This document shows, piece after piece, positions 22,182 through 32,496 of a stretch of 64,000 nt of DNA. The DNA lies in the NCBI GenBank assembly GCA_024743175.1, contig JANSXA010000003.1, forward strand, positions 372,001-436,000, read 5' to 3'. Numbering within the stretch: the first letter of the stretch is position 1; every line of letters begins with the position of its first letter. The position numbers and the translations under genes were made by a program. The notes below the pieces were generated by a model. That model saw only the letters and a list, made by a program, of their open reading frames with translations, was not told the DNA's origin and searched no databases. This DNA is from Pseudomonadaceae bacterium. Lineage in GTDB: Bacteria; Pseudomonadota; Gammaproteobacteria; Pseudomonadales; Azotimanducaceae.

Positions 22182-23066
22182 TCAGGTATCCTCGCCGAAG
22201 GTGTTCTCCAGCCAGTTCACTAACTTACGCACTTTGTTGCTTTCGGTAGTATTCGGCAGTGCTACGATGCGATAGGTCGCTCCCGTCAGCGCGATATCTT
22301 CCCTGAGAGGCTGCAGCAGTCCGCGGTTGACCAGGTCGGCTGCCAGCACGGAGCTGGCGAGTGCTATGCCATGCCCGGCCATCGCCGCCTGCAGCACGTA
22401 CAGCTCTTCATCGAACGCGAGTATGCGCTCCTCTCCCGGGGCGGTCAGTCCCGCGACGGCGAACCATTCCTGCCAGCTTACATGCTCTAACACCGGCTGC
22501 TGCCAGCGCGTATGCAGGAGAGTGGCCTCAGCCTCTAAGGCAGTGGCGTCTGTGCCTACCGCTGCCAGGGCGACGAACCGTTCTTCCATCAGCGGAATAT
22601 CCTCCAGGTCCGCCTGCGGGTTGCGACTGTAGCGGATAGCCAGATCAGTGTCTCGGTCCCGATGTAAATCCACCAACCTCGTAGAGGTATCGATCTTCAC
22701 CCGAATATCCGGCTCCTGTTGGTAGAAGCGCGGCAGTTCCGGTACCAGCCTCAGTGCCGCGAAGGCTGGGGTGGTGGAGACGTTGATGATCGAGGCCTGC
22801 TCAAGGACATCCTCGAGGCCGGATCGAATTTCCAGAAATCCGCGGGTCAATGCCGGTGCGAGGGCCTTGCCCGCCGGCGTCAGCTCTACCCGACGGGTTT
22901 TTCTGATGAAAAGGCTCGCCTGAAGCTGAGACTCAAGTGACCGAATCTGGTGGGAAATGGCGGTAGGGGTGACGAACAGCTCATCGGCAGCTTCCTTGAA
23001 GCTACCCAATCGCGCCGCAGCCTCAAAGGCACGCAATGCCCCTAGTGGAGGTAGTTGTGCGAACAT
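22182..23066 (-). CDS. LysR-family regulator (GcvA/AmpR-like)
   Basis: A 294-residue LysR regulator. The N-terminal winged helix (LPPLGALRAFEAAARLGSFK, then EAADELFVTPTAISHQIRSL) is of the GcvA/AmpR type, and a two-lobed effector domain follows (about 90-290). It is divergent from the quinone reductase gene 132 bp away, the usual LysR arrangement, and probably regulates it and itself. The effector cannot be predicted from sequence. Confidence 0.93.
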   Translation of the reverse strand: MFAQLPPLGALRAFEAAARLGSFKEAADELFVTPTAISHQIRSLESQLQASLFIRKTRRVELTPAGKALAPALTRGFLEIRSGLEDVLEQASIINVSTTPAFAALRLVPELPRFYQQEPDIRVKIDTSTRLVDLHRDRDTDLAIRYSRNPQADLEDIPLMEERFVALAAVGTDATALEAEATLLHTRWQQPVLEHVSWQEWFAVAGLTAPGEERILAFDEELYVLQAAMAGHGIALASSVLAADLVNRGLLQPLREDIALTGATYRIVALPNTTESNKVRKLVNWLENTFGEDT

Positions 23067-23198
23067 TTATAAATGAAATAATCTCATCAATGCGTGCAAT
23101 TTTCCCTTTTGTGCTGGGCTTATGTAAAGGCCAGTATCAGATTGAAGACAAAAGATGAATGAATACTTTTCACTCATAACGACTAAGAGGACCAGATC

Positions 23199-23864
23199 AT
23201 GAGCCATATCTTGCACTTAGATGCCAGTGCCCGGAGCCAACGCTCCATTACGCGACAACTCACTTCGGCGTTCGTAGCCCAGTGGCTGGACTGGCAGCCG
23301 GACGCTGTTGTCACCCATCGCGACGTCGGTAGTCATCCGCCGCCGATGGTGAGCCAGTCATGGATCGCCGCGGCCTTTGCCGGCGAGGCGCGCACCGACG
23401 AACAGCGCGAACTGCTTTCCGTATCAGACACCTTGATTGATGAGGTGGTCGCCGCGGATCTGGTTCTGATTGGCACGCCCATGTATAACTACGGCATGCC
23501 TGCGGCGCTCAAAGCCTGGTTTGACCAGATCATTCGCGTCGATCGGACTTTCACCTTTGACCTCGCCCGCGGCGACCAGCCGCTGGAGCCGGTCCTGGAT
23601 GGGAAGCAGGTCGTGGTGATGACGTCATCGGGCGAGTTCGGCTTCGGCGCCGGTGAACTTAATGCAGCGCACGATCATCTGGTACCCCATATTCGAAGCT
23701 GTGCTCGGTATCTGGGCGCTGAGACTTTTGAGCACCTGGCTGTGGAATACCAGGAGTTTGGCGACGAGCGCCACGACGCGTCAATGCGTGCTGCATTCGA
23801 CGCGCTTCCGACTCTGGTCAAACAATTGCAAGATTTCGCCTCGCGGCATGAGAAGGTTGCCTGA
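23199..23864 (+). CDS. FMN-dependent NADH:quinone/azo oxidoreductase
   Basis: A 221-residue flavodoxin-fold enzyme of the AzoR (AcpD) family, which uses NAD(P)H and FMN for two-electron reduction of quinones and azo compounds. Visible: the phosphate-binding loop near the start (HLDASARSQRSITRQLTSAF), the FMN loop TPMYNYGMPAALKAWFDQII and the later VVMTSSGEFGFG. AGAGG lies before the ATG. Divergent from the LysR gene, it probably answers to quinone or electrophile stress. An AzoR-like N-terminal fragment also occurs at 44.8 kb. Confidence 0.92.
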   Translation: MSHILHLDASARSQRSITRQLTSAFVAQWLDWQPDAVVTHRDVGSHPPPMVSQSWIAAAFAGEARTDEQRELLSVSDTLIDEVVAADLVLIGTPMYNYGMPAALKAWFDQIIRVDRTFTFDLARGDQPLEPVLDGKQVVVMTSSGEFGFGAGELNAAHDHLVPHIRSCARYLGAETFEHLAVEYQEFGDERHDASMRAAFDALPTLVKQLQDFASRHEKVA

Positions 23865-23996: not shown

Positions 23997-24563
23997 TTAT
24001 TCGGAGTCCATAAGAACTTCTGAATACTCTCGTACCGTGTAGCGCGGAGTTATGTGCTGTGGGCAATTCCAGTCGAACGCAACCACCTGGATAATGGCGA
24101 GCCTCTCGACGTTGGCGACGTAATCTGATGGTAACAACCCCTCGATTTCTGACTTCGGCGCGTCTCGAACATCTTGCATAGTCAGGCGACCCAGGATTTT
24201 CAGACGGCGCCGGTTAGCGTAGTCAATGAATATTAGAGAACACCGGTCGTTTCTCGTCACGTTTCCCGCGCTGATCAATTGAGTATTCCCTCTGAAGTCA
24301 GCGTAGGCAATATGGGTCGAATCCAGAACGTTAGCGAACCCGATTGGCCCGCCGCGATGTTGAACATACGGCCAGCCGTTTTCATTCACAGTCGCAAGGT
24401 AGAAAGAGTCTCGTTGACCTATGAATTGGGCCTCTCGCTCGGTCAGCCGATCGTTTGGTCCGAACGCTGACTGGAGACGCTCGTTCTGTGGCCTCGATCC
24501 AAATTCATGTTGGGTCTGTTTTACGCCCTGGGTAAACATGTGGTCCGCGAATTGATGAGTCAT
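23997..24563 (-). CDS. Pyridoxamine-phosphate-oxidase-fold flavin-binding protein
   Basis: Start taken at ATG 24563 (MTHQFADHMFTQGVKQTQHE), with AGGA 9 nt upstream, rather than a start 23 codons further up. The 188 residues show the split-barrel flavin fold: EREAQFIGQRDSFYLATVNE, then NGWPYVQHRGGPIGF and LKILGRLTM. Members bind FMN or F420 and reduce or oxidise small molecules; the substrate is unknown. It is the last gene of a four-gene leftward set that starts with a sigma-54 promoter at 27.7 kb. Confidence 0.85.
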   Translation of the reverse strand: MTHQFADHMFTQGVKQTQHEFGSRPQNERLQSAFGPNDRLTEREAQFIGQRDSFYLATVNENGWPYVQHRGGPIGFANVLDSTHIAYADFRGNTQLISAGNVTRNDRCSLIFIDYANRRRLKILGRLTMQDVRDAPKSEIEGLLPSDYVANVERLAIIQVVAFDWNCPQHITPRYTVREYSEVLMDSE

Positions 24564-24655: not shown

Positions 24656-25222
24656 TTAGGCTGCTTGACCATCAGATACAGTCCAGCGATTCGATTGAAA
24701 GGCAGTATCCACGGGCGTGTTGGCAACGTGATTTGTGTAGTTAGACATAATCTTCAGGCTCGTTCCCAGAATCACTTCCAGTACGGTTTGCTTGGTGTAT
24801 CCCGACGCAAAGAATTCGTCGAGGTCATCTTGGTCGACCCAGCCTCGGCCTGTGTTTACCGCAATCGCGAACTGGCGGAGGGCTTCCAGCTTTGTATCTG
24901 CAATTGGTGTATCGGTACGCAGTGACTCAATGACATCAGCGGGCACTTTCGCGCTTTGTGCTATTGTCGTGTGGGCTGCCATGCAGTAGGTGCAGCCGTT
25001 CAGACGGTTGTTGGTCATCAGGATGATCTGCCGCTCGGTTTCCGAAAGATCGGTTTTGTCGAATATTCCCGCCAGGGTCATGTAGCCCTCGAGCAAAGTC
25101 GGAGCCTCGGCCATCCCGGCGAGCAGGTTGGGCAGAAAACCATAGGTGCCTTTCGCGGCATCGATAAATGCCTTACTGGCTTCGGGTGCGCTGTCGTTTG
25201 TGTGTAAAGTAAAGTCGGTCAT
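24656..25222 (-). CDS. Carboxymuconolactone-decarboxylase / AhpD-family protein
   Basis: The ATG at 25222 (MTDFTLHTNDSAPEASKAFI) has ACGGAGA close upstream; an open frame extends 37 codons further but without support. The 188 residues carry the AhpD-like core ETERQIILMTNNRLNGCTYC, then MAAHTTIAQSAKVP, with a CxxC pair and nearby His, as in alkylhydroperoxidase-like enzymes. A second domain (about 120-180) completes the helical bundle. A thiol peroxidase role fits the adjacent disulfide reductase, but this is inferred. Confidence 0.87.
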   Translation of the reverse strand: MTDFTLHTNDSAPEASKAFIDAAKGTYGFLPNLLAGMAEAPTLLEGYMTLAGIFDKTDLSETERQIILMTNNRLNGCTYCMAAHTTIAQSAKVPADVIESLRTDTPIADTKLEALRQFAIAVNTGRGWVDQDDLDEFFASGYTKQTVLEVILGTSLKIMSNYTNHVANTPVDTAFQSNRWTVSDGQAA

Positions 25223-25311: not shown

Positions 25312-26217
25312 CTAGTTTGCTCGCGGTGTCCAACTGATGGTTAGGCTGCCCCAGACCTGGTGGCGCCCGCCTTCAAACTCTGCGCTCTGCGCACGAATCG
25401 AGTAACGGAAATTCAGGCCTCTCAAGGAGGTGGCCAGGCCCAGCCAGACTTCTCCGACAAGGCGTTTGAGTCTTCCAGCATCAATTGTGTGCGCGCTTTC
25501 ACGAAACTGGCCCTGCAGTAGGGCGTTGTAGCCAACGGCGCGGATGCGAAATCCGCCAAACACACCGTTCTGGCCGCGTCGCTGCGGCTCATCAAGATGA
25601 GGGAGAAACTCGTCGCGACCTTCTCCCCACCATCGGGGCTTTTTTGACAACTGCAGTGCGATGCCAACGGAAACGTCGGTTGCGTATCCAACCGAAGCGG
25701 CGGTTTCCGCTATCAAGGATATATTTGCGAACTGTGTGGAGGTGTCTGTCAGTAGTGTGTAACGGGTCCAACCCAGTCGGAATGTGGGTTCGCCGCCATC
25801 GGATAGCTGCTTATCGGAACCGTTAGGCTCCTGGGATCCTGTTACATCGTGGATTGCGCGATAGACCGAGCTGCCGAGACGAGAACCAATAATGCCGCTG
25901 CTGATTGTTTGCCTGGTGATTGCACGTTCGCTGACGTGCGCTTTGCTACGAGCGATAAAAAGTAGATTTGCATAGGGGCGGTCGCTGGTATCGACATCGC
26001 TTCGGCTGAGATCATCGGGCGTATAGAACAGCAACCCGCCTTGCCAGGTTTTGCTTCGACTTCGCTCGAAGGTTGCTCGGATACCGCCTGTGTAGTCGCG
26101 ATCATTATCGGAACCGGTCAAAATATCGTTATCGAACGATACTGTGGTGTTCGCGAGACTGTTGCAGGAGAGCAGTATCAGCCAGGTTGCGAGCACTAGG
26201 GATCGAGTCGTCTCCAT
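25312..26217 (-). CDS. LpxR-like outer-membrane lipid A deacylase family protein (DUF2219)
   Basis: A 301-residue precursor with a signal peptide (cleavage after SLA/N). The mature part is a predicted beta-barrel of amphipathic strands. It carries LpxR signatures: VSFDNDILTGSDNDRDYTGG near the N-terminus (the Asn, Asp and Thr positions of the active site), SVYRAIHDVTG (the catalytic-type His), and a C-terminal strand LTISWTPRAN. LpxR removes the 3'-acyloxyacyl chain of lipid A; whether this divergent member does so is unproven. It follows the reductase gene by 12 bp in the same operon. Confidence 0.82.
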   Translation of the reverse strand: METTRSLVLATWLILLSCNSLANTTVSFDNDILTGSDNDRDYTGGIRATFERSRSKTWQGGLLFYTPDDLSRSDVDTSDRPYANLLFIARSKAHVSERAITRQTISSGIIGSRLGSSVYRAIHDVTGSQEPNGSDKQLSDGGEPTFRLGWTRYTLLTDTSTQFANISLIAETAASVGYATDVSVGIALQLSKKPRWWGEGRDEFLPHLDEPQRRGQNGVFGGFRIRAVGYNALLQGQFRESAHTIDAGRLKRLVGEVWLGLATSLRGLNFRYSIRAQSAEFEGGRHQVWGSLTISWTPRAN

Positions 26218-26229
26218 GTGATCTCTCCA

Positions 26230-27573
26230 CTACAGATTTTTAATGTCGGAAGAGAATGTGGGGAAAGCGAATGCAGTGTTCTGCAGGCTCGATCTGCCGA
26301 TTTTGTGATTGATTGCGAGGGTGAACAGGTGGATGAGGTCATCGCCCCGGTGGCCAACTAAATGCGCGCCCACCAATTGGTCTGTTGCGCCATCGATAAG
26401 CACTTTGGCCCAGGCAGTGTCTTCGGCATAGGTCCTGCTGGAAAACCAGTCCTTCATGTCCGTGGTCTGGACGACCAGGTCGGGATAGCGCTGTCGGGCT
26501 TCGGTTTCTGTTAACCCCACGCTAGCTAGCGGCGGTATGGTATGCAGGGCTTGTGGGATTACGTCGGATGAGATCGTCTCTGGTATTCCTCTAACGATGT
26601 ATTCGCCCACCTGTTTGCCTTCGCGCGTGGCCAGAGGGGACAACTGGGCAGTACTGGATAAAGCGTCTCCCACTACCCAGATATATGGGTTGGAGGTTGA
26701 TCGAAAAAACGCATCCGTGGTAATCGTGCGACCGTTGTGTTCCACGTTGGCGGCACTTAGGTTCAGGTGGGCGACGTTGGGCACTCTGCCCGTACCGTTT
26801 GCTACCTTGTCAGCTGCAATCTCGACGACTTGGGTACCGGCCCGATACGTGACCCGTAGTCCGGAGTCTTCAGCGTGTATTCCTTCTACCGTGACATCCG
26901 TTACGATCGTCACGCCAATTGACTCGGTTGCCTCTCTCAGTGAAGCGACGGCGTCTGCGTCCATGCGCGGCAAGAGTTGAGGAAGTGCTTCCAGGATTGT
27001 GACGCTGGTTCCGGCACGGGCGAAAACGTGTGCGAACTCCAGCGCAATGACGCCGCCACCGATAAACACAAGATGAGATGGCAAGGTTGTGTTTGTGAGT
27101 AAGTCGTCGGAGTTAACGAGGTACTCGGCGCCAGGAATCGAAAGCTGGCGTGGTGATGAGCCCGTGGCGATGACAATGTGTTTTCCACGGATTCGCTGCC
27201 CGTTGACTTCAATGTCTTGTGGGCCAACAAACTGCGCTTGCCCACAAAACGTTTCGGCGAACGATTCGGCGGCCTGCTGCATGGCTTCGGGTATATGCGC
27301 AATCATGCCCTGTTGGCGTTGGATCAGTTGTGCCCAGTCGAGGGCTGGTACGGAAACGTCGATGCCGTGATGATGCGCGTGATTGATCTGGTCGAGTGCC
27401 TGTGCTGCTGCTACCAGGATCTTTTTCGGCGTGCAGCCTCGATTCGGGCAGGTCCCGCCGAAGGTGTCTGATTCAATTACCGCCACGCTCAAACCGGCTT
27501 GGCTTGAGGTCCGAGCGACGGCTAATCCCGCATTTCCGGCGCCAATCACAATGACATCAAATTCGTCGCGCAT
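26230..27573 (-). CDS. Pyridine nucleotide-disulfide oxidoreductase (glutathione-reductase-like)
   Basis: A 447-residue class I flavoprotein. AAGGAG lies 6 nt before the ATG at 27573. The FAD motif is VIVIGAGNAGLAVART, the redox-active disulfide is in GGTCPNRGCTPKK, the NAD(P) motif is VFIGGGVIALEFAHVFARAG, and the second FAD motif is YIWVVGDAL. At the C-terminus, where classical members have HPT with the catalytic His, it reads AFAFPTFSSD, so His is replaced by Phe. It may reduce a low-molecular thiol, a metal ion or a protein partner. It is the first gene after a perfect sigma-54 promoter. Confidence 0.9.
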   Translation of the reverse strand: MRDEFDVIVIGAGNAGLAVARTSSQAGLSVAVIESDTFGGTCPNRGCTPKKILVAAAQALDQINHAHHHGIDVSVPALDWAQLIQRQQGMIAHIPEAMQQAAESFAETFCGQAQFVGPQDIEVNGQRIRGKHIVIATGSSPRQLSIPGAEYLVNSDDLLTNTTLPSHLVFIGGGVIALEFAHVFARAGTSVTILEALPQLLPRMDADAVASLREATESIGVTIVTDVTVEGIHAEDSGLRVTYRAGTQVVEIAADKVANGTGRVPNVAHLNLSAANVEHNGRTITTDAFFRSTSNPYIWVVGDALSSTAQLSPLATREGKQVGEYIVRGIPETISSDVIPQALHTIPPLASVGLTETEARQRYPDLVVQTTDMKDWFSSRTYAEDTAWAKVLIDGATDQLVGAHLVGHRGDDLIHLFTLAINHKIGRSSLQNTAFAFPTFSSDIKNL

Positions 27574-27595: not shown

Positions 27596-27649
27596 AGTGC
27601 GGGACCCCGGGGGGGGTAGGGGGAGGGTGAGAACCCGGAGTCCCGCACT
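27596..27649 (-). promoter_or_regulatory. Long hairpin with C-rich loop in the reductase leader; G-rich opposite strand
   Basis: Arms AGTGCGGGACCCCGGG (27596-27611) and CCCGGAGTCCCGCACT (27634-27649) pair at 15 of 16 positions around a 22-nt loop. The plus strand of the loop region is G-rich (G9 TA G5 A G3), compatible with a G-quadruplex in the template strand. In mRNA this sits between the sigma-54 start site and the ribosome-binding site, ending 10 nt before AAGGAG. Confidence 0.6.
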
Positions 27650-27672
27650 TGTTGACTCTTGCTTGAGCTAAG

Positions 27673-27689
27673 AGCAAACGTCGTGCCAG
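27673..27689 (-). promoter_or_regulatory. Sigma-54 (-24/-12) promoter of the reductase operon
   Basis: On the minus strand CTGGCACGACGTTTGCT, which matches YTGGCACGrNNNTTGCW at every position, with GG and GC separated by exactly 10 nt. It points at the oxidoreductase gene; the predicted start is about 27662, leaving an 89-nt leader. Confidence 0.85.
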
Positions 27690-27731
27690 GTCAGTTCTGC
27701 AATAAAAACAAGGGGTTACGCAACGGTGCGG

Positions 27732-27766
27732 CCCGCAAAAATTTGTTTATCGCAAATTTTTGCGGG
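27732..27766. promoter_or_regulatory. Perfect 14-bp inverted repeat; contains a candidate activator site
   Basis: CCCGCAAAAATTTG, 7-nt loop, CAAATTTTTGCGGG. It lies 46 bp past the stop of the sigma-54 activator gene (possible terminator) and 45-75 bp upstream of the leftward sigma-54 promoter. Within it, ATCGCAA-ATTT-TTGCGGG (27749-27766) resembles the palindrome ATCGCAA-TTAT-TTGCGAT upstream of the rightward promoter. Confidence 0.65.
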
Positions 27767-27811
27767 TCGGGATCGCGGAAAGTTGGGAATAAGGGGGCGT
27801 GGAGGAGGCGT

Positions 27812-29266
27812 TTAGTTTGGCTTTTCGATACCAAACGTCTTCATTCGATAAGATACCGTGGATGCTTTCAGTCCCATCAGTTCGGCGACTCCGCCCTCAC
27901 CGGATACGCGCCACTCAGCGGCAGTCAGCGCTGCCAGCAGATTAGCCTTCTCAAGAGCGCGAAACTCTTCTTCGGTGAGAAATTCACTGTCTTGTTTTAC
28001 CTGCTTGGACTTCTTCGGTGCCTCTGGTGTCAATACGCGATCCAGACGTAGTCGTGAACCCGTGGACAGAATCAATGCGCGCTCAATGACGTTTTTGAGC
28101 TCGCGGATATTTCCGGGCCAGTCGTGCGCTTCGAGCATGGCCAGGTGCTGTTTGGTAATGGGCAGCTGCTCGCGGCCTAGCTCTTCGCCGGCGGTGGTGA
28201 CGAAGTACTGAGCAAGCTGCGGGAGGTCTTCCTTGCGCGCACGCAGCGGCGGAACGTCGATCGGGAAGACGCTGAGTCGGTAGTACAGGTCTTCTCGAAA
28301 TCTTCCGGCGTCTATTTCTTTTGCCAGGTTTCGATTCGTTGCGGCAACAATCCGAACGTCCACCTTTATAGTCTTGTCGTCACCGATGCGTTCGAACTCG
28401 TGTTCTTGTAACGCCCGCAGGAGTTTGCCCTGTTGGGAGATAGGAATTTCGCCAACCTCGTCTAAGAATAAAGTTCCGCCGTCTGCGAGTTGAAGTCTAC
28501 CCACGCGGTCGCGGTGCGCGCCGGTGAATGCACCCTTCACGTGTCCGAAAAACTCACTTTCAAATAGTTCTGAGGGGATGGAAGCGCAATTTACTTTTAC
28601 CATAGGTGCATCCGCACGCGGGCTTTGGTCATGGATCGCCCGGGCGATCGCCTCCTTGCCGACTCCGGATTCGCCCTGAATCAGCACGCTTGCCGGTGTT
28701 GCCGCGACAGCTTCAATTTGAGATAGCGTACGCTGCAGTGCGTCGCTGGTTCCGACGATGTCTCTGTAGCGCTTCTCGCTGCGAAGCTCCTCGCGCAAGT
28801 AGTCTCGTTCCTGTTCGAGTTGAACTTTCAGGGAACTGACTTCCTTTAGAGCCCGTTCTCGTTCCAGTTCCAGCTGACAGCGTTCCGATATATCCTTGAA
28901 AACCACGACAGCGCCAACGATCCCGCCTGCTTTTTTGACCGGGGTGGTGACGTACTCTACTGGAATCGCATCTCCATTCGCGTGCCAGAATACCTCGTCG
29001 TCAACCTCGTGGACTTCACCATCGGTTAGCGCCGCGTATATCGGGCATTCCTCGCGGGGATACGGAGTTCCGTTCACATGACTGTGGTGATGAATGTCAT
29101 GCAGCGGCTCGCCGATGATTTCGGATTCAGTCCAACCCATAATTCGCACCGCCGCTTCGTTGACAAACGTACAGCGGCCTTCCAGGTCTAGCCCGTACAC
29201 GCCTTCACCCAATGCCCCAAGAATGAGGTCATGGGGAACCTCGTTCGCCTTCTCCCGTCTAGTCAT
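27812..29266 (-). CDS. Sigma-54-dependent transcriptional activator with PAS sensor
   Basis: A 484-residue enhancer-binding protein. N-terminal PAS domain at about residues 10-125 ([20 protein letters not shown], with [19 protein letters not shown]), a coiled-coil linker (about 130-165), a sigma-54 interaction AAA+ domain at about 170-405 with Walker A GESGVGKE, the GAFTGA loop ([12 protein letters not shown]) and Walker [14 protein letters not shown], and a C-terminal Fis-type HTH ([20 protein letters not shown]). It has no receiver domain, so signals probably reach it through PAS. It lies between two divergent sigma-54 promoters, which it almost certainly controls. Confidence 0.96.
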
Positions 29267-29316
29267 GTCGTCTGCCAGATCAAAAAATTGATAGTCATGC
29301 GCTCAAAAAACTGAGA

Positions 29317-29334
29317 ATCGCAATTATTTGCGAT
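29317..29334. promoter_or_regulatory. Candidate upstream activator sequence
   Basis: ATCGCAA-TTAT-TTGCGAT, a perfect 7-bp inverted repeat, 50 bp downstream of (outside) the activator start and 44 bp upstream of the rightward -24 element. A related half-perfect copy lies at 27749-27766 near the other sigma-54 promoter, so it is the probable activator binding site. Confidence 0.65.
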
Positions 29335-29377
29335 GGTAGGATTTGTGTCAACCTATTGATTAATAAGACAAAAAAAC

Positions 29378-29394
29378 TTGGCACGTTATGTGCT
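29378..29394 (+). promoter_or_regulatory. Sigma-54 (-24/-12) promoter of the DUF1348 operon
   Basis: TTGGCACGTTATGTGCT, one or two mismatches to YTGGCACGrNNNTTGCW, with GG at 29380-29381 and GC at 29392-29393 (10 nt between). The predicted start is near 29405, 26 nt before the ATG at 29431. Confidence 0.78.
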
Positions 29395-29430
29395 CTCACT
29401 GCTGCATCAGCAACTTTGGCAGCAGCAAAA

Positions 29431-29859
29431 ATGTCCGACCCGATCTTACCCCCTTTTACCGCCGAGACGGCGTGCGAGAAGGTCCAACGCGCTGAAGACG
29501 CGTGGAACACAAAAGACCCTGAAATAGTGGCGCTTGCCTACAGCGAAGGATCTCACTGGCGCAATAGAGACGAATTCTTCCAAGGTAGAGATGCCATTCG
29601 TGCGTTTCTGTATCGCAAGTGGCGCAAGGAATTGCACTACCGTCTGATGAAAGAGCTCTGGGCGTTCGATGGAAACCGTATCTCGGTTCGATTCGAGTAT
29701 GAATGGCAGGACGCCGATTCCGGCAGATGGTATCGCACTCACGGGAACGAACATTGGGAGTTCAATGACCAGGGCCTCATGACCCGGCGCGACATGAGTG
29801 CAAACGACGTGTCGATTTCCTCCGCTGAACGCCGTATCGGCATGCAAGGTCAGCCATGA
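29431..29859 (+). CDS. DUF1348 (NTF2-like) protein
   Basis: A 142-residue NTF2/SnoaL-fold protein of DUF1348: MSDPILPPFTAETACEKVQR, then EDAWNTKDPEIVALAY, SHWRNRDEFFQGR, KWRKELHYRLMKELWAF and NEHWEFNDQGLM. I start it at ATG 29431 because family members begin just before LPPFTAETA. The open frame extends back to 29356, but that part overlaps the sigma-54 promoter. The fold binds small hydrophobic ligands; the function is unknown. First gene of the rightward sigma-54 unit. Confidence 0.88.
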   Translation: MSDPILPPFTAETACEKVQRAEDAWNTKDPEIVALAYSEGSHWRNRDEFFQGRDAIRAFLYRKWRKELHYRLMKELWAFDGNRISVRFEYEWQDADSGRWYRTHGNEHWEFNDQGLMTRRDMSANDVSISSAERRIGMQGQP

Positions 29860-30067: not shown

Positions 30068-30886
30068 ATGAAAAACAAACCTTCTAAACATAAACTGATC
30101 TGCGTGCAGGCAGGGCTCGCGATCGCAGCGGTCGTTGGCTTTGCCGCTGCGTTTGCGGCTAGTGGCGATGCCCGTCCGGTGACCGCCAGCAATCCGCCGG
30201 TGAATGACGGCCTACCGATGCCCGGCTTCGAAATCACCAAGCAAAACACTGCGATTGTGATCACCGATCCGCAGAATGACTTTCTGTCCCCCAACGGAGT
30301 GACGTGGGGGGTAGTAGGCAAAAGCATTACCGAAAACCGAACGGTCGAAAATCTGCACGCGCTTTTCAAGGCGGCCGATAAAACCGGGATGCCCGTGTTT
30401 ATCTCACCCCACTATTACTTCGAGCATGATCATAAGTGGCAGTTCGAAGGCACCTTGGAAACGCTTATGCACAGCATAGGCATGTTCGACCGTCCGCATG
30501 CGTTAACGCTGGAAGGTTTCGAAGGATCCGGTGCCGATTGGCTTGAGATCTACAAGCCTTACATCAACAACGGCAAGACCGTTGTGACGAGCCCGCACAA
30601 AGTGTACGGCCCGGAAAGCAACGACCTGGTTCTGCAACTGCGCAAGGCGGGTGTATCCAAAGTCGTACTCGGCGGCATGTCGTCGAACCTCTGCACGGAG
30701 TCTCACATGCGCGCCTTGGTCGAGGCGGGTTTTGAGGTGCTCGTGGTCACTGATGCAACGGCCGGCGCTATCACCGAGCACTACGATGGCTACGCCGCAT
30801 CACTGACCAATTTCCGCATGATCGCAAGCAAAGTGGACAACACCCGAAATACGGTGAAGGCCATTGAAGCTGCGTTTAAAAAATAG
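30068..30886 (+). CDS. Exported isochorismatase-family cysteine hydrolase
   Basis: The ATG at 30068 gives a 272-residue precursor with a signal peptide (KHKLICVQAGLAIAAVVGFA, AAFAASGDA), which is rare in this family. The catalytic triad is visible: Asp in IVITDPQNDF, Lys in TVVTSPHKVYG and Cys in GGMSSNLCTESH. Members cleave amide, ether or N-N bonds; the substrate is unknown. A spacer of 208 bp separates it from the DUF1348 gene, and 36 bp separate it from the YHS gene, so it is probably in the same transcript. Confidence 0.88.
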   Translation: MKNKPSKHKLICVQAGLAIAAVVGFAAAFAASGDARPVTASNPPVNDGLPMPGFEITKQNTAIVITDPQNDFLSPNGVTWGVVGKSITENRTVENLHALFKAADKTGMPVFISPHYYFEHDHKWQFEGTLETLMHSIGMFDRPHALTLEGFEGSGADWLEIYKPYINNGKTVVTSPHKVYGPESNDLVLQLRKAGVSKVVLGGMSSNLCTESHMRALVEAGFEVLVVTDATAGAITEHYDGYAASLTNFRMIASKVDNTRNTVKAIEAAFKK

Positions 30887-30922: not shown

Positions 30923-31399
30923 ATGAAAAGTCTCGTTAACACAGTCGCTATACTTACCCTTAGTGTTGCCCTGCCGGTTTTGGCAGCGGACGAACACAAT
31001 GTCTCGAACGGCATCACCACGGCCGGCGTTCCGCTTGGTCTGCACGGCGTGGATGCCGTCGCTCTAACGACCATCCATGATGTGTCAGAAGGGTCCGCAA
31101 GACACACCGTCGTGGTCAATGATGTTGCTTACTACTTTGCGTCGGAAACCTCGGCAGAGCAGTTTGAAGCCCACCCGGATCAGTACCTACCGCAGTATGG
31201 TGGCTTTTGTGCATTCGCCGTAGCGCTGGGTAAAAAGTTTGATGGCGATCCGAGATATGCCGACATTGTTGACGGCAAACTCTACTTGTTCGTGAACGAA
31301 GAAATCTTCCTCAAGTACAAGCAGGATGCTCGAAATATTCTCCGCAAAGCAGAGAAGACCTGGCCTTCCATACGACACACCGCTGTCGAAGAGTTGTAA
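30923..31399 (+). CDS. Exported YHS-domain protein
   Basis: A 158-residue precursor with a signal peptide (cleavage after VLA/AD). It has a YHS-type domain at about residues 60-125: VNDVAYYFASETSAEQFEAH, then PDQYLPQYGGFCAFAVALG. YHS domains bind copper or haem-like ligands in some proteins; here a single Cys in GGFCA is present. It follows the isochorismatase-like gene closely and ends the rightward sigma-54 unit at a strong terminator. Confidence 0.87.
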   Translation: MKSLVNTVAILTLSVALPVLAADEHNVSNGITTAGVPLGLHGVDAVALTTIHDVSEGSARHTVVVNDVAYYFASETSAEQFEAHPDQYLPQYGGFCAFAVALGKKFDGDPRYADIVDGKLYLFVNEEIFLKYKQDARNILRKAEKTWPSIRHTAVEEL

Positions 31400-31479: not shown

Positions 31480-32496
31480 ATGAAACTAAACATGCAACAT
31501 CTAAACTGGACTGGACGCGTTCTGCTTGCCTCGATGTTTCTCATTTCCGGTATCGGCAGATCCGTGCGACACAAGCTGTTCGTGTCCGGTAGCGGCGTTC
31601 AAAATCAACCTAAAGTCGTTCATCAATTGCCGGTGATTCAGATAGGGGGCCTTGCAGCGTTCGCTATGATTGCGTTTGCGGCGAACAGCCTGCTTGCGAG
31701 ACTTGCTTTAGCGGAGACAGAGATTGATCCGGCGAGTTTCAGTGCGATTCGGCTGGTGTCAGGTGCGGTCTTTATAAGCTTGTTCGCACTGGTGCGGTTT
31801 GGGACCGCACTTCCAAAACAAGGAAGTTGGCTCTCAGGGTTAGCGTTGTTTGCATACGCAGCTGCCTTCTCATACGGATACGTTCAACTGCACACTGGAA
31901 CAGGCGCCCTCATTCTGTTTGGGTCTGTGCAGATCTCCATGTTGGTATATGGGTTTGCGACCGGAAACCGACTCAATGTCACGCAATGGCTCGGCTTTAT
32001 CGTAGCTTTTATTGCTGTTGCCTATCTTGTGTCGCCTGGCGCCGTTGCTCCAGATGCCTCGGGAGCCACCATAATGATGCTTGCAGGTATTGCCTGGGCG
32101 ATATACACGATACGTGGTGTGGGCGGTGACCCTGTTCTGATGAGCGCAGGGAACTTCGCACGCACAGTGCCTATGTGTCTGATTCTGTGTCTTCTTGGAT
32201 GGCCATACGCAGAGTTCGACGCTCAAGGAGCGCTGTTTGCCCTTTGTTCAGGCGTTTTGAGCTCTGGATTTGGGTATGTAGTTTGGTATCAGGTGCTCCC
32301 CCACGTAAGTGTCGTCAATGCTGCAACCATTCAGTTGAGTGTGCCGGCGATAGCTGCCGGGATGGGTATTTTGTTCCTGAGCGAGCCAGTGTCTCTAAGA
32401 TTGGCTGTATCGACGACCGGGATACTGCTGGGGATTGCCGTTGTGTTGAGGGGCGGCGATGTTTCGCTGCGAAGACGCCAGTCAACTGAATCTTGA
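31480..32496 (+). CDS. DMT/EamA transporter with a DoxX-like N-terminal graft
   Basis: A 338-residue protein. Residues from about 52 onward are an EamA (DMT) transporter with ten membrane helices in two repeats (AAFAMIAFAANSLLARLALA, then LSSGFGYVVWYQVLPHVSVV). Residues 1-30 (MNMQHLNWTGRVLLASMFLI-like, then SGIGR) instead look like the start of a DoxX-family protein, joined in frame by a short linker. A strong AGGAGG precedes the ATG. The gene appears to be a deletion fusion of two genes and may still make a working transporter. The substrate is unknown. Confidence 0.82.
   Translation: MKLNMQHLNWTGRVLLASMFLISGIGRSVRHKLFVSGSGVQNQPKVVHQLPVIQIGGLAAFAMIAFAANSLLARLALAETEIDPASFSAIRLVSGAVFISLFALVRFGTALPKQGSWLSGLALFAYAAAFSYGYVQLHTGTGALILFGSVQISMLVYGFATGNRLNVTQWLGFIVAFIAVAYLVSPGAVAPDASGATIMMLAGIAWAIYTIRGVGGDPVLMSAGNFARTVPMCLILCLLGWPYAEFDAQGALFALCSGVLSSGFGYVVWYQVLPHVSVVNAATIQLSVPAIAAGMGILFLSEPVSLRLAVSTTGILLGIAVVLRGGDVSLRRRQSTES

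What the first reader, a model, noticed from the sequence alone, without database searches (positions are those of the whole stretch)
27596..29431. A sigma-54 activator flanked by two outward-facing -24/-12 promoters with matched palindromes
Seen: the leftward promoter CTGGCACGACGTTTGCT matches the sigma-54 consensus at every position, and the rightward TTGGCACGTTATGTGCT nearly so; both have GG-N10-GC. A PAS-AAA+-Fis activator lies between them. ATCGCAA-N4-TTGCGAT stands upstream of the rightward promoter and a close variant upstream of the leftward one. Inference: one regulon of about seven genes in two operons: disulfide reductase, LpxR-like barrel, AhpD-like, PNPOx-like, DUF1348, exported isochorismatase-like, exported YHS protein. 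This gene set as a sigma-54 unit is not one I recognise.
Basis: partly seen in the sequence, partly recalled or inferred. Interest (0 to 1): 0.8.

Follow-up and report, generated by a model that had tools for sequence, protein, structure and literature searches.

The report
Sigma-54 switch for two detox operons
A bacterial gene switch related to the cyanate and cyanide regulators CynF and NitA sits between two sigma-54 promoters that carry the same evenly spaced docking sites, and it very probably turns on two small sets of redox and detoxification genes; the chemical it senses is unknown.

Summary
Upstream of each -24/-12 promoter lies the same array: three palindromic sites (consensus TCnCAAATATTTGnGA, some degenerate) 17 and 23 bp apart, the nearest 61-62 bp before the -24, then an IHF-like element. 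A matrix trained without the window ranks these promoters first and second of 652 GG-N10-GC sites (33.4, 29.6; next -13.3; 15 shuffles at most -2.4). A model of the array gives full-length hits in 21 of 21 genomes with the activator (7 of 7 outside its training set), in 0 of 20 chosen family genomes without it, and only at these two promoters in the window's genome. The activator forms its own clade beside CynF (cyanate) and NitA (cyanide) regulators, whose loci mostly show the same spacing with ACGA half-sites. Elsewhere such promoters precede DUF1348, glutathione transferase, PNPOx-reductase, ChrR-cupin, isochorismatase, YHS and disulfide-reductase genes. Best reading: a PAS-sensing, probably self-limiting sigma-54 activator of a redox/electrophile detox regulon. 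Binding, sigma-54 dependence, signal and role are untested; LpxR and AhpD membership rests on operon position.

The parts
27812..29266 (-). activator: PAS domain, sigma-54 AAA+ domain (GAFTGA present), Fis-type HTH by homology
   Evidence: Pfam PAS 1.4e-10, Sigma54_activat 4e-72; clade
29378..29394 (+). rightward sigma-54 (-24/-12) promoter
27673..27689 (-). leftward sigma-54 (-24/-12) promoter, full consensus
29317..29334 (.). operator R1 (proximal, perfect palindrome), starts 62 bp before the T of TGGCAC
   Evidence: 20.6 bits, best site in the window
29300..29317 (.). operator R2, 17 bp further out
   Evidence: 14.4 bits
29277..29294 (.). operator R3, weak, 40 bp from R1
   Evidence: 3.1 bits
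27732..27749 (.). operator L1 (proximal, degenerate), 61 bp from the leftward promoter
   Evidence: 7.2 bits
   Evidence: 16.8 bits, second best site in the window
27772..27789 (.). operator L3, 40 bp from L1
   Evidence: 9.7 bits
29349..29361 (+). IHF-like element CAACCTATTGATT (inferred)
   Evidence: 0 mismatches to YAANNNNTTGATW; the consensus is recalled
27706..27718 (-). IHF-like element TAACCCCTTGTTT (inferred)
   Evidence: 1 mismatch
29323..29351 (-). sigma-70-like promoter of the activator; -10 hexamer 29323-29328 lies inside operator R1
   Evidence: TTGACA-17-AATAAT, 11 of 12 (2 promoter-like sites found in the region, 1.1 expected)
29431..29859 (+). DUF1348 (NTF2/SnoaL-like) protein; start ATG 29431, about 26 nt after the predicted start site
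   Evidence: Pfam 9.1e-61 on the longer ORF 29356-29859
30068..30886 (+). isochorismatase-like hydrolase, probably exported (by eye)
   Evidence: Pfam 9.8e-22
30923..31399 (+). YHS domain-containing protein, probably exported (by eye)
   Evidence: NF041384, 107 bits, cut-off 70
26230..27573 (-). FAD pyridine nucleotide-disulfide reductase, first gene of the leftward operon
   Evidence: Pfam 1e-55
25312..26217 (-). LpxR-like outer-membrane barrel
   Evidence: Pfam 4.8e-36
24656..25222 (-). CMD/AhpD-like protein
   Evidence: Pfam 7.2e-07; NCBIfam peroxid_rel below cut-off
23997..24563 (-). PNPOx-like flavoprotein
   Evidence: Pfam 1.3e-11

Best explanation
The locus is a two-promoter sigma-54 switch. 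The activator, made from its own sigma-70-type promoter, binds as an oligomer to three palindromes (TCnCAAATATTTGnGA; 17 and 22-23 bp apart) 60-100 bp upstream of each -24/-12 promoter. When its PAS domain senses a small stress molecule the AAA+ ring, brought to the promoter by an IHF-type bend between array and promoter, opens the sigma-54 complex on both sides. Rightward this makes DUF1348, an isochorismatase-like hydrolase and a YHS protein (the last two probably exported); leftward a disulfide reductase, an LpxR-like barrel, an AhpD-like protein and a PNPOx flavoprotein. Binding to the central site covers the activator's own -10 and so limits its synthesis. The regulon works as a redox/electrophile detoxification set. 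Shown by sequence: promoters, arrays, their conservation and co-occurrence with the activator, kinship. Inferred: binding, IHF, sigma-54 dependence, autorepression, signal, and the physiological role.
For: Promoters and array. Co-occurrence: full-length array hits (35 bits or more) in 21 of 21 genomes with the activator, among them 7 of 7 that gave no sequence to the model (G019, G425, G367, G220, G253, G714, G826; G253 is a near-copy of trained G360), and in 0 of 20 family genomes without it (picked by me from the list), whose best partial hit is 27.7 bits. In its own genome only the two window promoters. The leftward array was not used to train the matrix and still shows all three sites at 61, 78 and 101 bp. 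Activator clade supported 98/97. Recurrent target genes within 7 kb downstream on the same strand, of 28 promoters: DUF1348 13 (one partial, L132), glutathione transferase 9 (10 with L064 by Pfam), PNPOx-FNR fusion 9, ChrR-cupin 7, isochorismatase 5, small PNPOx 4, disulfide reductase 3 (two of them only 30-34% like the window's), YHS 3 (two on a near-duplicated stretch of L210). Self-promoter overlapping operator. Protein kinds.
Against: No expression, binding or mutant data. 5 of the 28 promoters show none of these genes by BLAST: L007 (contig end), L064 (a GST by Pfam), L135, L214, L215. The IHF-like motif can arise by chance in AT-rich spacers (shuffle odds 0 to 0.69 per group-A promoter), and in 3 of 27 promoters (L066, L210 twice) the best match lies elsewhere. 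The sigma-70 overlap is seen in the window; the scan found 2 promoter-like sites where 1.1 are expected by chance, and matches in orthologs are weaker (6-9 of 12). LpxR and AhpD do not recur behind such promoters. The automatic calling gave no promoter in 10 of 22 group-A regions, and 6 of 21 group-A loci had no array above threshold (L065, L124, L125, L126, L133, L136); the model does find one in each of these six genomes (for G220 on another contig, C48). The detox role is read from gene families, most of them without known substrate.
Confidence: 0.78

Rival explanations
1. The activator controls only the rightward operon; the leftward promoter serves another sigma-54 activator or none.
For: In most ortholog loci only the divergent promoter next to the activator is seen; the proximal leftward site is degenerate (7.2 bits).
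Against: All three leftward sites stand at the conserved spacings and the promoter ranks second of 652 with a matrix that never saw the window; second promoters with the array also exist elsewhere, e.g. L131 before GST-PNPOxFNR-cupin-disulfide reductase.
Confidence: 0.08
2. It is a CynF- or NitA-type nitrogen-assimilation switch that responds to cyanate or cyanide as a nitrogen source.
For: Nearest characterised relatives are CynF and NitA; PAS residues H56, H60, H61, H63, C74, H86 are largely shared; DUF1348 genes also lie in cyn loci L145, L149, L055 (59-63% like the window's; L055 also by Pfam); NrtS lies in two group-A operons (L128, L131), and formate/nitrite transporters and HPP proteins recur in group-B loci.
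Against: No cyanase in the genome (0 of 1) and no cyn or nit genes in any of the 21 group-A loci as fetched, 3 to 18 kb each; different half-site (CAA, not CGA) and a separate clade. Nit1C was not searched in the whole genome.
Confidence: 0.12
3. The palindromes and GG-N10-GC motifs are chance resemblances.
For: Simple pattern counts in window and genome are near control values.
Against: Ranking, spacing, held-out recovery and co-occurrence.
Confidence: 0.01

Closest known systems
CynF, sigma-54 activator of cynABDS (Pseudomonas pseudoalcaligenes CECT5344; PMC6627978, passages seen)
   Same: divergent from its target operon, Fis-type sigma-54 regulator, sigma-54 promoter predicted before cynA and a sigma-70 site before cynF; in the cyn loci fetched here the same palindrome spacing, three sites in 14 of 17
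   Different: half-site ACGA instead of CAA, array about 23 bp further from the promoter (medians 77 and 53.5 bp), cyanate transporter and cyanase as targets, separate clade, usually a longer N-terminus
NitA, putative sigma-54 regulator of the nit1C cyanide cluster (PMC11049912, passages seen)
   Same: same family, divergent position, similar PAS residues, related palindromes, three sites in 4 of 6 regions
   Different: separate clade (100/100), nitrilase cluster as target, ACGA-type half-sites
RpoN-dependent genes of Bradyrhizobium sp. DOA9 (PMC13207237, passages seen)
   Same: isochorismatase genes fall in an rpoN mutant, and isochorismatase and glutathione transferase genes are listed with predicted sigma-54 sites
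   Different: single genes in a long list; the passages name no activator, DUF1348, array or operon like this one
71cR, a fungal DUF1348 protein (PMC4608573, passages seen)
   Same: same Pfam family as the first rightward gene; expression in Neurospora raised resistance to the photosensitiser cercosporin
   Different: a single fungal protein, no regulon; disruption in Cercospora gave no change in resistance
NorR and NifA (NCBIfam models)
   Same: highest-scoring curated activator models (363 bits each)
   Different: below their cut-offs (476 and 528.85), only about residues 122-441 aligned

Membership tests
sigma-54-dependent promoter | GG-N10-GC with TGGCACG-N4-TTGC-like context | tested here: met
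sigma-54-dependent promoter | loss of transcription without RpoN | not testable with these tools
   needs experiment
bacterial enhancer-binding protein | sigma-54 AAA+ domain with GAFTGA loop | tested here: met
   Pfam 4e-72; GAFTGA read in the translation
CynF | falls in the CynF clade | tested here: not met
   CynF clade 98/84, group A 98/97 apart
CynF | next to cynABDS; cyanase in genome | tested here: not met
CynF/NitA superfamily | triple palindrome array with 17/18 and 39/40 bp spacing (a feature found here, not a published criterion) | tested here: met
NitA | falls in the NitA clade, next to nit1C | tested here: not met
NorR | NCBIfam equivalog cut-off 476 bits | tested here: not met
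   363.4 bits
IHF-assisted promoter | IHF consensus between enhancer and promoter | tested here: met
   0 and 1 mismatch at the two window promoters; 24 of 27 promoters have their best match (0-3 mismatches) 28-31 bp before the -24
IHF-assisted promoter | IHF binding and bending | not testable with these tools
   needs experiment

The most novel reading that the evidence does not exclude
This is the founding case of a third branch of a regulator family whose PAS domain, rich in conserved His and Cys, senses small reactive cyano-type or electrophilic molecules (cyanide, cyanate, isocyanate or isothiocyanate-like). All branches use one enhancer plan, three palindromes at fixed 17 and 22 bp steps with an IHF bend about halfway to the promoter; branches changed the half-site (CGA to CAA) and shifted the array by about whole pairs of helical turns (medians 53.5, 77 and 108 bp from array centre to -24), and thereby moved from cyano-nitrogen use to electrophile defence, with DUF1348 as a shared enzyme of that chemistry.
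Probability: 0.22. Interest if true: 0.72.

Novelty: new variant of a known kind. Interest (0 to 1): 0.52.

Why it matters
It ties a set of proteins of mostly unknown function (DUF1348, ChrR-type cupin, PNPOx-reductase fusion, isochorismatase-like hydrolase, YHS protein) to one activator and a readable DNA code, so the regulon can be predicted in further genomes and its inducer screened with one reporter. It also gives CynF and NitA a common operator layout, which I did not find in the papers searched, and offers a natural series for testing how enhancer distance, IHF bend and half-site evolve together.

Tried and rejected
Simple consensus counting was not informative: palindrome and operator patterns in the window and genome occur at about control frequency; only the combination of three sites with a promoter separates signal from noise.

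Further regulon members in the own genome: of the operator-like sites, 16 loci were examined (L002-L004 and L164-L176; L170 and L171 are the window's own sites; places listed without a locus were not read); none but the window's has a full array. L175 has one good site (16.3 bits) 62 bp from a poor promoter and was not pursued. The whole-array model finds only two full arrays there.

A plain cyanate system: rejected for lack of a cyanase and of cyn/nit neighbours. NorR/NifA membership: below cut-offs. A published description: searches showed no sigma-54 unit of this gene set; of the papers listed I looked at passages of six (PMC6627978, PMC4608573, PMC11049912, PMC12316311, PMC13207237, PMC2121137) and saw the rest only as listings. 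The main text of PMC6627978 holds no mention of palindrome, enhancer, UAS, IHF, inverted repeat or PAS domain; its supplement, which holds the promoter figure, was not looked at. The library lacks most subscription papers.

PAS cofactor: the PAS model (pLDDT 88, 10 sequences) matches PAS folds in general (3lyx, PA0861, DosP, LOV, NifL), which does not tell the ligand. The HHSH...C type of PAS also occurs in proteins matched only over the PAS (L051-L054), so it is not specific to this family.

A midpoint rule for the IHF-like element: clear in group A (11 of 12 called promoters with 2 mismatches or fewer at 24-25 bp), only partial in cyn loci (8 of 14 at 35-37 bp), too few nit loci (4, at 37, 48, 55 and 88 bp); I keep it as an idea.

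The control sets were single-base shuffles with fewer rounds (8 against 15) than the real run; the stricter control is.
Full report
What is there. Between 27812 and 29266 (minus strand) lies a 484-residue activator with a PAS domain and a sigma-54 AAA+ domain. To its right, reading right, stands TTGGCACGTTATGTGCT (29378-29394); to its left, reading left, CTGGCACGACGTTTGCT (27673-27689). They are the only exact matches to TGGCACG-N5-TGC in 64 kb.

Orthologs. Pattern counts alone prove nothing, so I fetched orthologs. The activator is patchy. At 58% identity or more it was found in 6 genomes besides the window's own in the family search (200 genomes, own included: G012, G069, G187, G001 with two copies, G019, G106), in 8 further ones in the order search (390 genomes, some repeated: G425, G367, G220, G569, G260, G360, G253, G256; G315 has a partial one that I did not use) and in 6 further ones in the class search (369 genomes: G911, G714, G708, G765, G826, G736). 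This gives 21 loci, called group A.

Motif. In the first 420 bases before the activator a symmetric motif search gave TCnCAAATATTTGnGA; 20 of 22 regions (window included) score about 12 bits or more, mean best score 17.4 against 8.5 in 20 sets of shuffled regions. The two low ones are L132 and L135; an array was found at each later with the promoter as anchor.

The array. Around the best site, further sites recur at 17 bp and at 39-40 bp, and the proximal site starts 60-63 bp before the T of TGGCAC. The window's rightward promoter has sites of 20.6, 14.4 and 3.1 bits. The leftward region was not in the training set, yet shows sites of 7.2, 16.8 and 9.7 bits at 61, 78 and 101 bp. With a matrix trained on the 21 orthologs only, the two window promoters come first and second of 652 GG-N10-GC sites (33.4, 29.6, next -13.3), and 15 dinucleotide shuffles reach at most -2.4. 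Spacings in that test were set, which had included the rightward promoter. Between array and promoter lies a conserved YAANNNNTTGATW-like element (alignment); in 24 of 27 promoters its best match, with 0 to 3 mismatches, lies 28-31 bp before the -24, in L066 and two L210 promoters elsewhere. That this is an IHF consensus is recalled, not from a call.

Co-occurrence. A sequence-only model of 17 promoters from 14 genomes was searched in 41 genomes: 21 with the activator, and 20 family members without a full-length one that I picked. Full-length matches of 35 bits or more occur in all 21, seven of which gave no sequence to the model, and in none of the 20, whose best match (27.7 bits) covers only model positions 69-120, the IHF-like and -24/-12 part. 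The window's own genome has two, the promoters described, and then falls to 20.0 bits. That search used stricter filters because it held more than 40 genomes, so weak arrays may be missed.

Target genes. Of 28 promoters examined for genes within 7 kb on the same strand (L129/L130 and L211/L213 come from near-identical genomes), DUF1348 follows 13 (one partial, L132; the window's own is hidden in that listing by an antisense ORF and counted), glutathione transferase 9 (10 with L064 by Pfam), a PNPOx-FNR-ferredoxin fusion 9, a ChrR-type cupin 7, isochorismatase 5 (once fused to DUF1348), a small PNPOx 4, disulfide reductase 3, YHS 3 (two on a near-duplicated stretch). L007 (contig end), L064, L135, L214 and L215 show none of them by BLAST. 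NrtS follows in L128 and L131, DoxX in L211 (Pfam; L213 by likeness). Counted by activator instead, DUF1348 lies in 12 of the 21 group-A loci. In L124 and L125 the activator neighbours YHS genes, in L124 with a MbnB/TglH/ChrH-type gene (L125 by clustering). These are mostly redox and conjugation enzymes, hence the detox reading, which is inference.

Kinship. Plasmid matches of 45-52% identity over nearly the full length include regulators beside cynABDS or the Nit1C cluster (the 6 opened of 20 listed, of 640 records, all lie beside such genes). In a tree of 57 proteins, midpoint-rooted, the window's group (22 rows) is one clade (98/97), with CynF (17 rows, 98/84) and NitA (6 rows, 100/100) apart. 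The CynF and NitA upstream regions have TTACGA-N4-TCGTAA palindromes (clear best site in 16 of 17 cyn and 5 of 6 nit regions), with three sites at the same spacings in 14 of 17 and 4 of 6. H56, H60, H61, H63, C74 and H86 of the PAS are kept in 22, 21, 22, 19, 22 and 21 of 22 in group A and in most cyn and nit members, but the same kind of PAS also occurs in other proteins (L051-L054).

Mechanism. The activator has a sigma-70-like promoter (11 of 12 matches) whose -10 lies inside the central palindrome, so binding should limit its own synthesis; the scan finds 2 such sites in the region where 1.1 are expected, and in orthologs the matches are weaker. With signal, the bound activator would open both sigma-54 promoters. 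CynF offers the precedent: a cynF mutant fails to express the cyanase, with a predicted sigma-54 site before cynA and a sigma-70 site before cynF (PMC6627978, passages). What the window's PAS senses is open; kinship suggests a small cyano-type molecule, gene content an electrophile or oxidant. DUF1348 touches both: it lies in cyn loci L145, L149 and L055, and a fungal member raised resistance to cercosporin when expressed in Neurospora, though the knock-out had no phenotype (PMC4608573, passages). In Bradyrhizobium, isochorismatase genes fall in an rpoN mutant and isochorismatase and glutathione transferase genes carry predicted sigma-54 sites (PMC13207237, passages), an independent hint that such genes can belong to sigma-54.

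Verdict. A conserved two-promoter sigma-54 switch by all sequence tests; a new clade of a known kind of activator with its own operator code, and a regulon that I did not find described.

Noticed in passing
27596-27649 (minus strand RNA): The predicted 5' leader of the leftward transcript folds into a GC-rich hairpin of 16 pairs (-36 kcal/mol for the leader, z -3.6) between promoter and the disulfide reductase gene; role unknown.
   Followed up: partly
31480-32496: The EamA-transporter ORF begins with about 27 residues that look like a DoxX start (by eye), as if a DoxX gene had been fused or overwritten; DoxX follows an array promoter in L211.
   Followed up: no
CynF/NitA loci L140-L160, L055-L059: Cyanate and cyanide regulators have a triple palindrome TTACGA-N4-TCGTAA upstream of the sigma-54 promoter with the same spacing as in the window; not found described in the papers searched.
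   Followed up: partly
IHF-like centre and array move away from the promoter together: about 25 and 53 bp (group A), 35-37 and 77 bp (8 of 14 cyn promoters); nit values (108 bp array) rest on four promoters only.
   Followed up: partly
L124 3252-7321, L125, L038: Relatives of the activator lie beside MbnB/TglH/ChrH (DUF692)-type genes, possibly copper- or oxidant-related (Pfam on L124 only; others by clustering).
   Followed up: partly
window 22182-23864: LysR-type regulator (by eye) and FMN-dependent azoreductase-like gene just beyond the leftward operon; may be a separate electrophile-response pair.
   Followed up: no
L141, L148, L138, L139: A further branch with ACGA-type sites sits near ChrR-cupin, amine oxidase, nitroreductase, HPP and MlaC genes.
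   Followed up: partly
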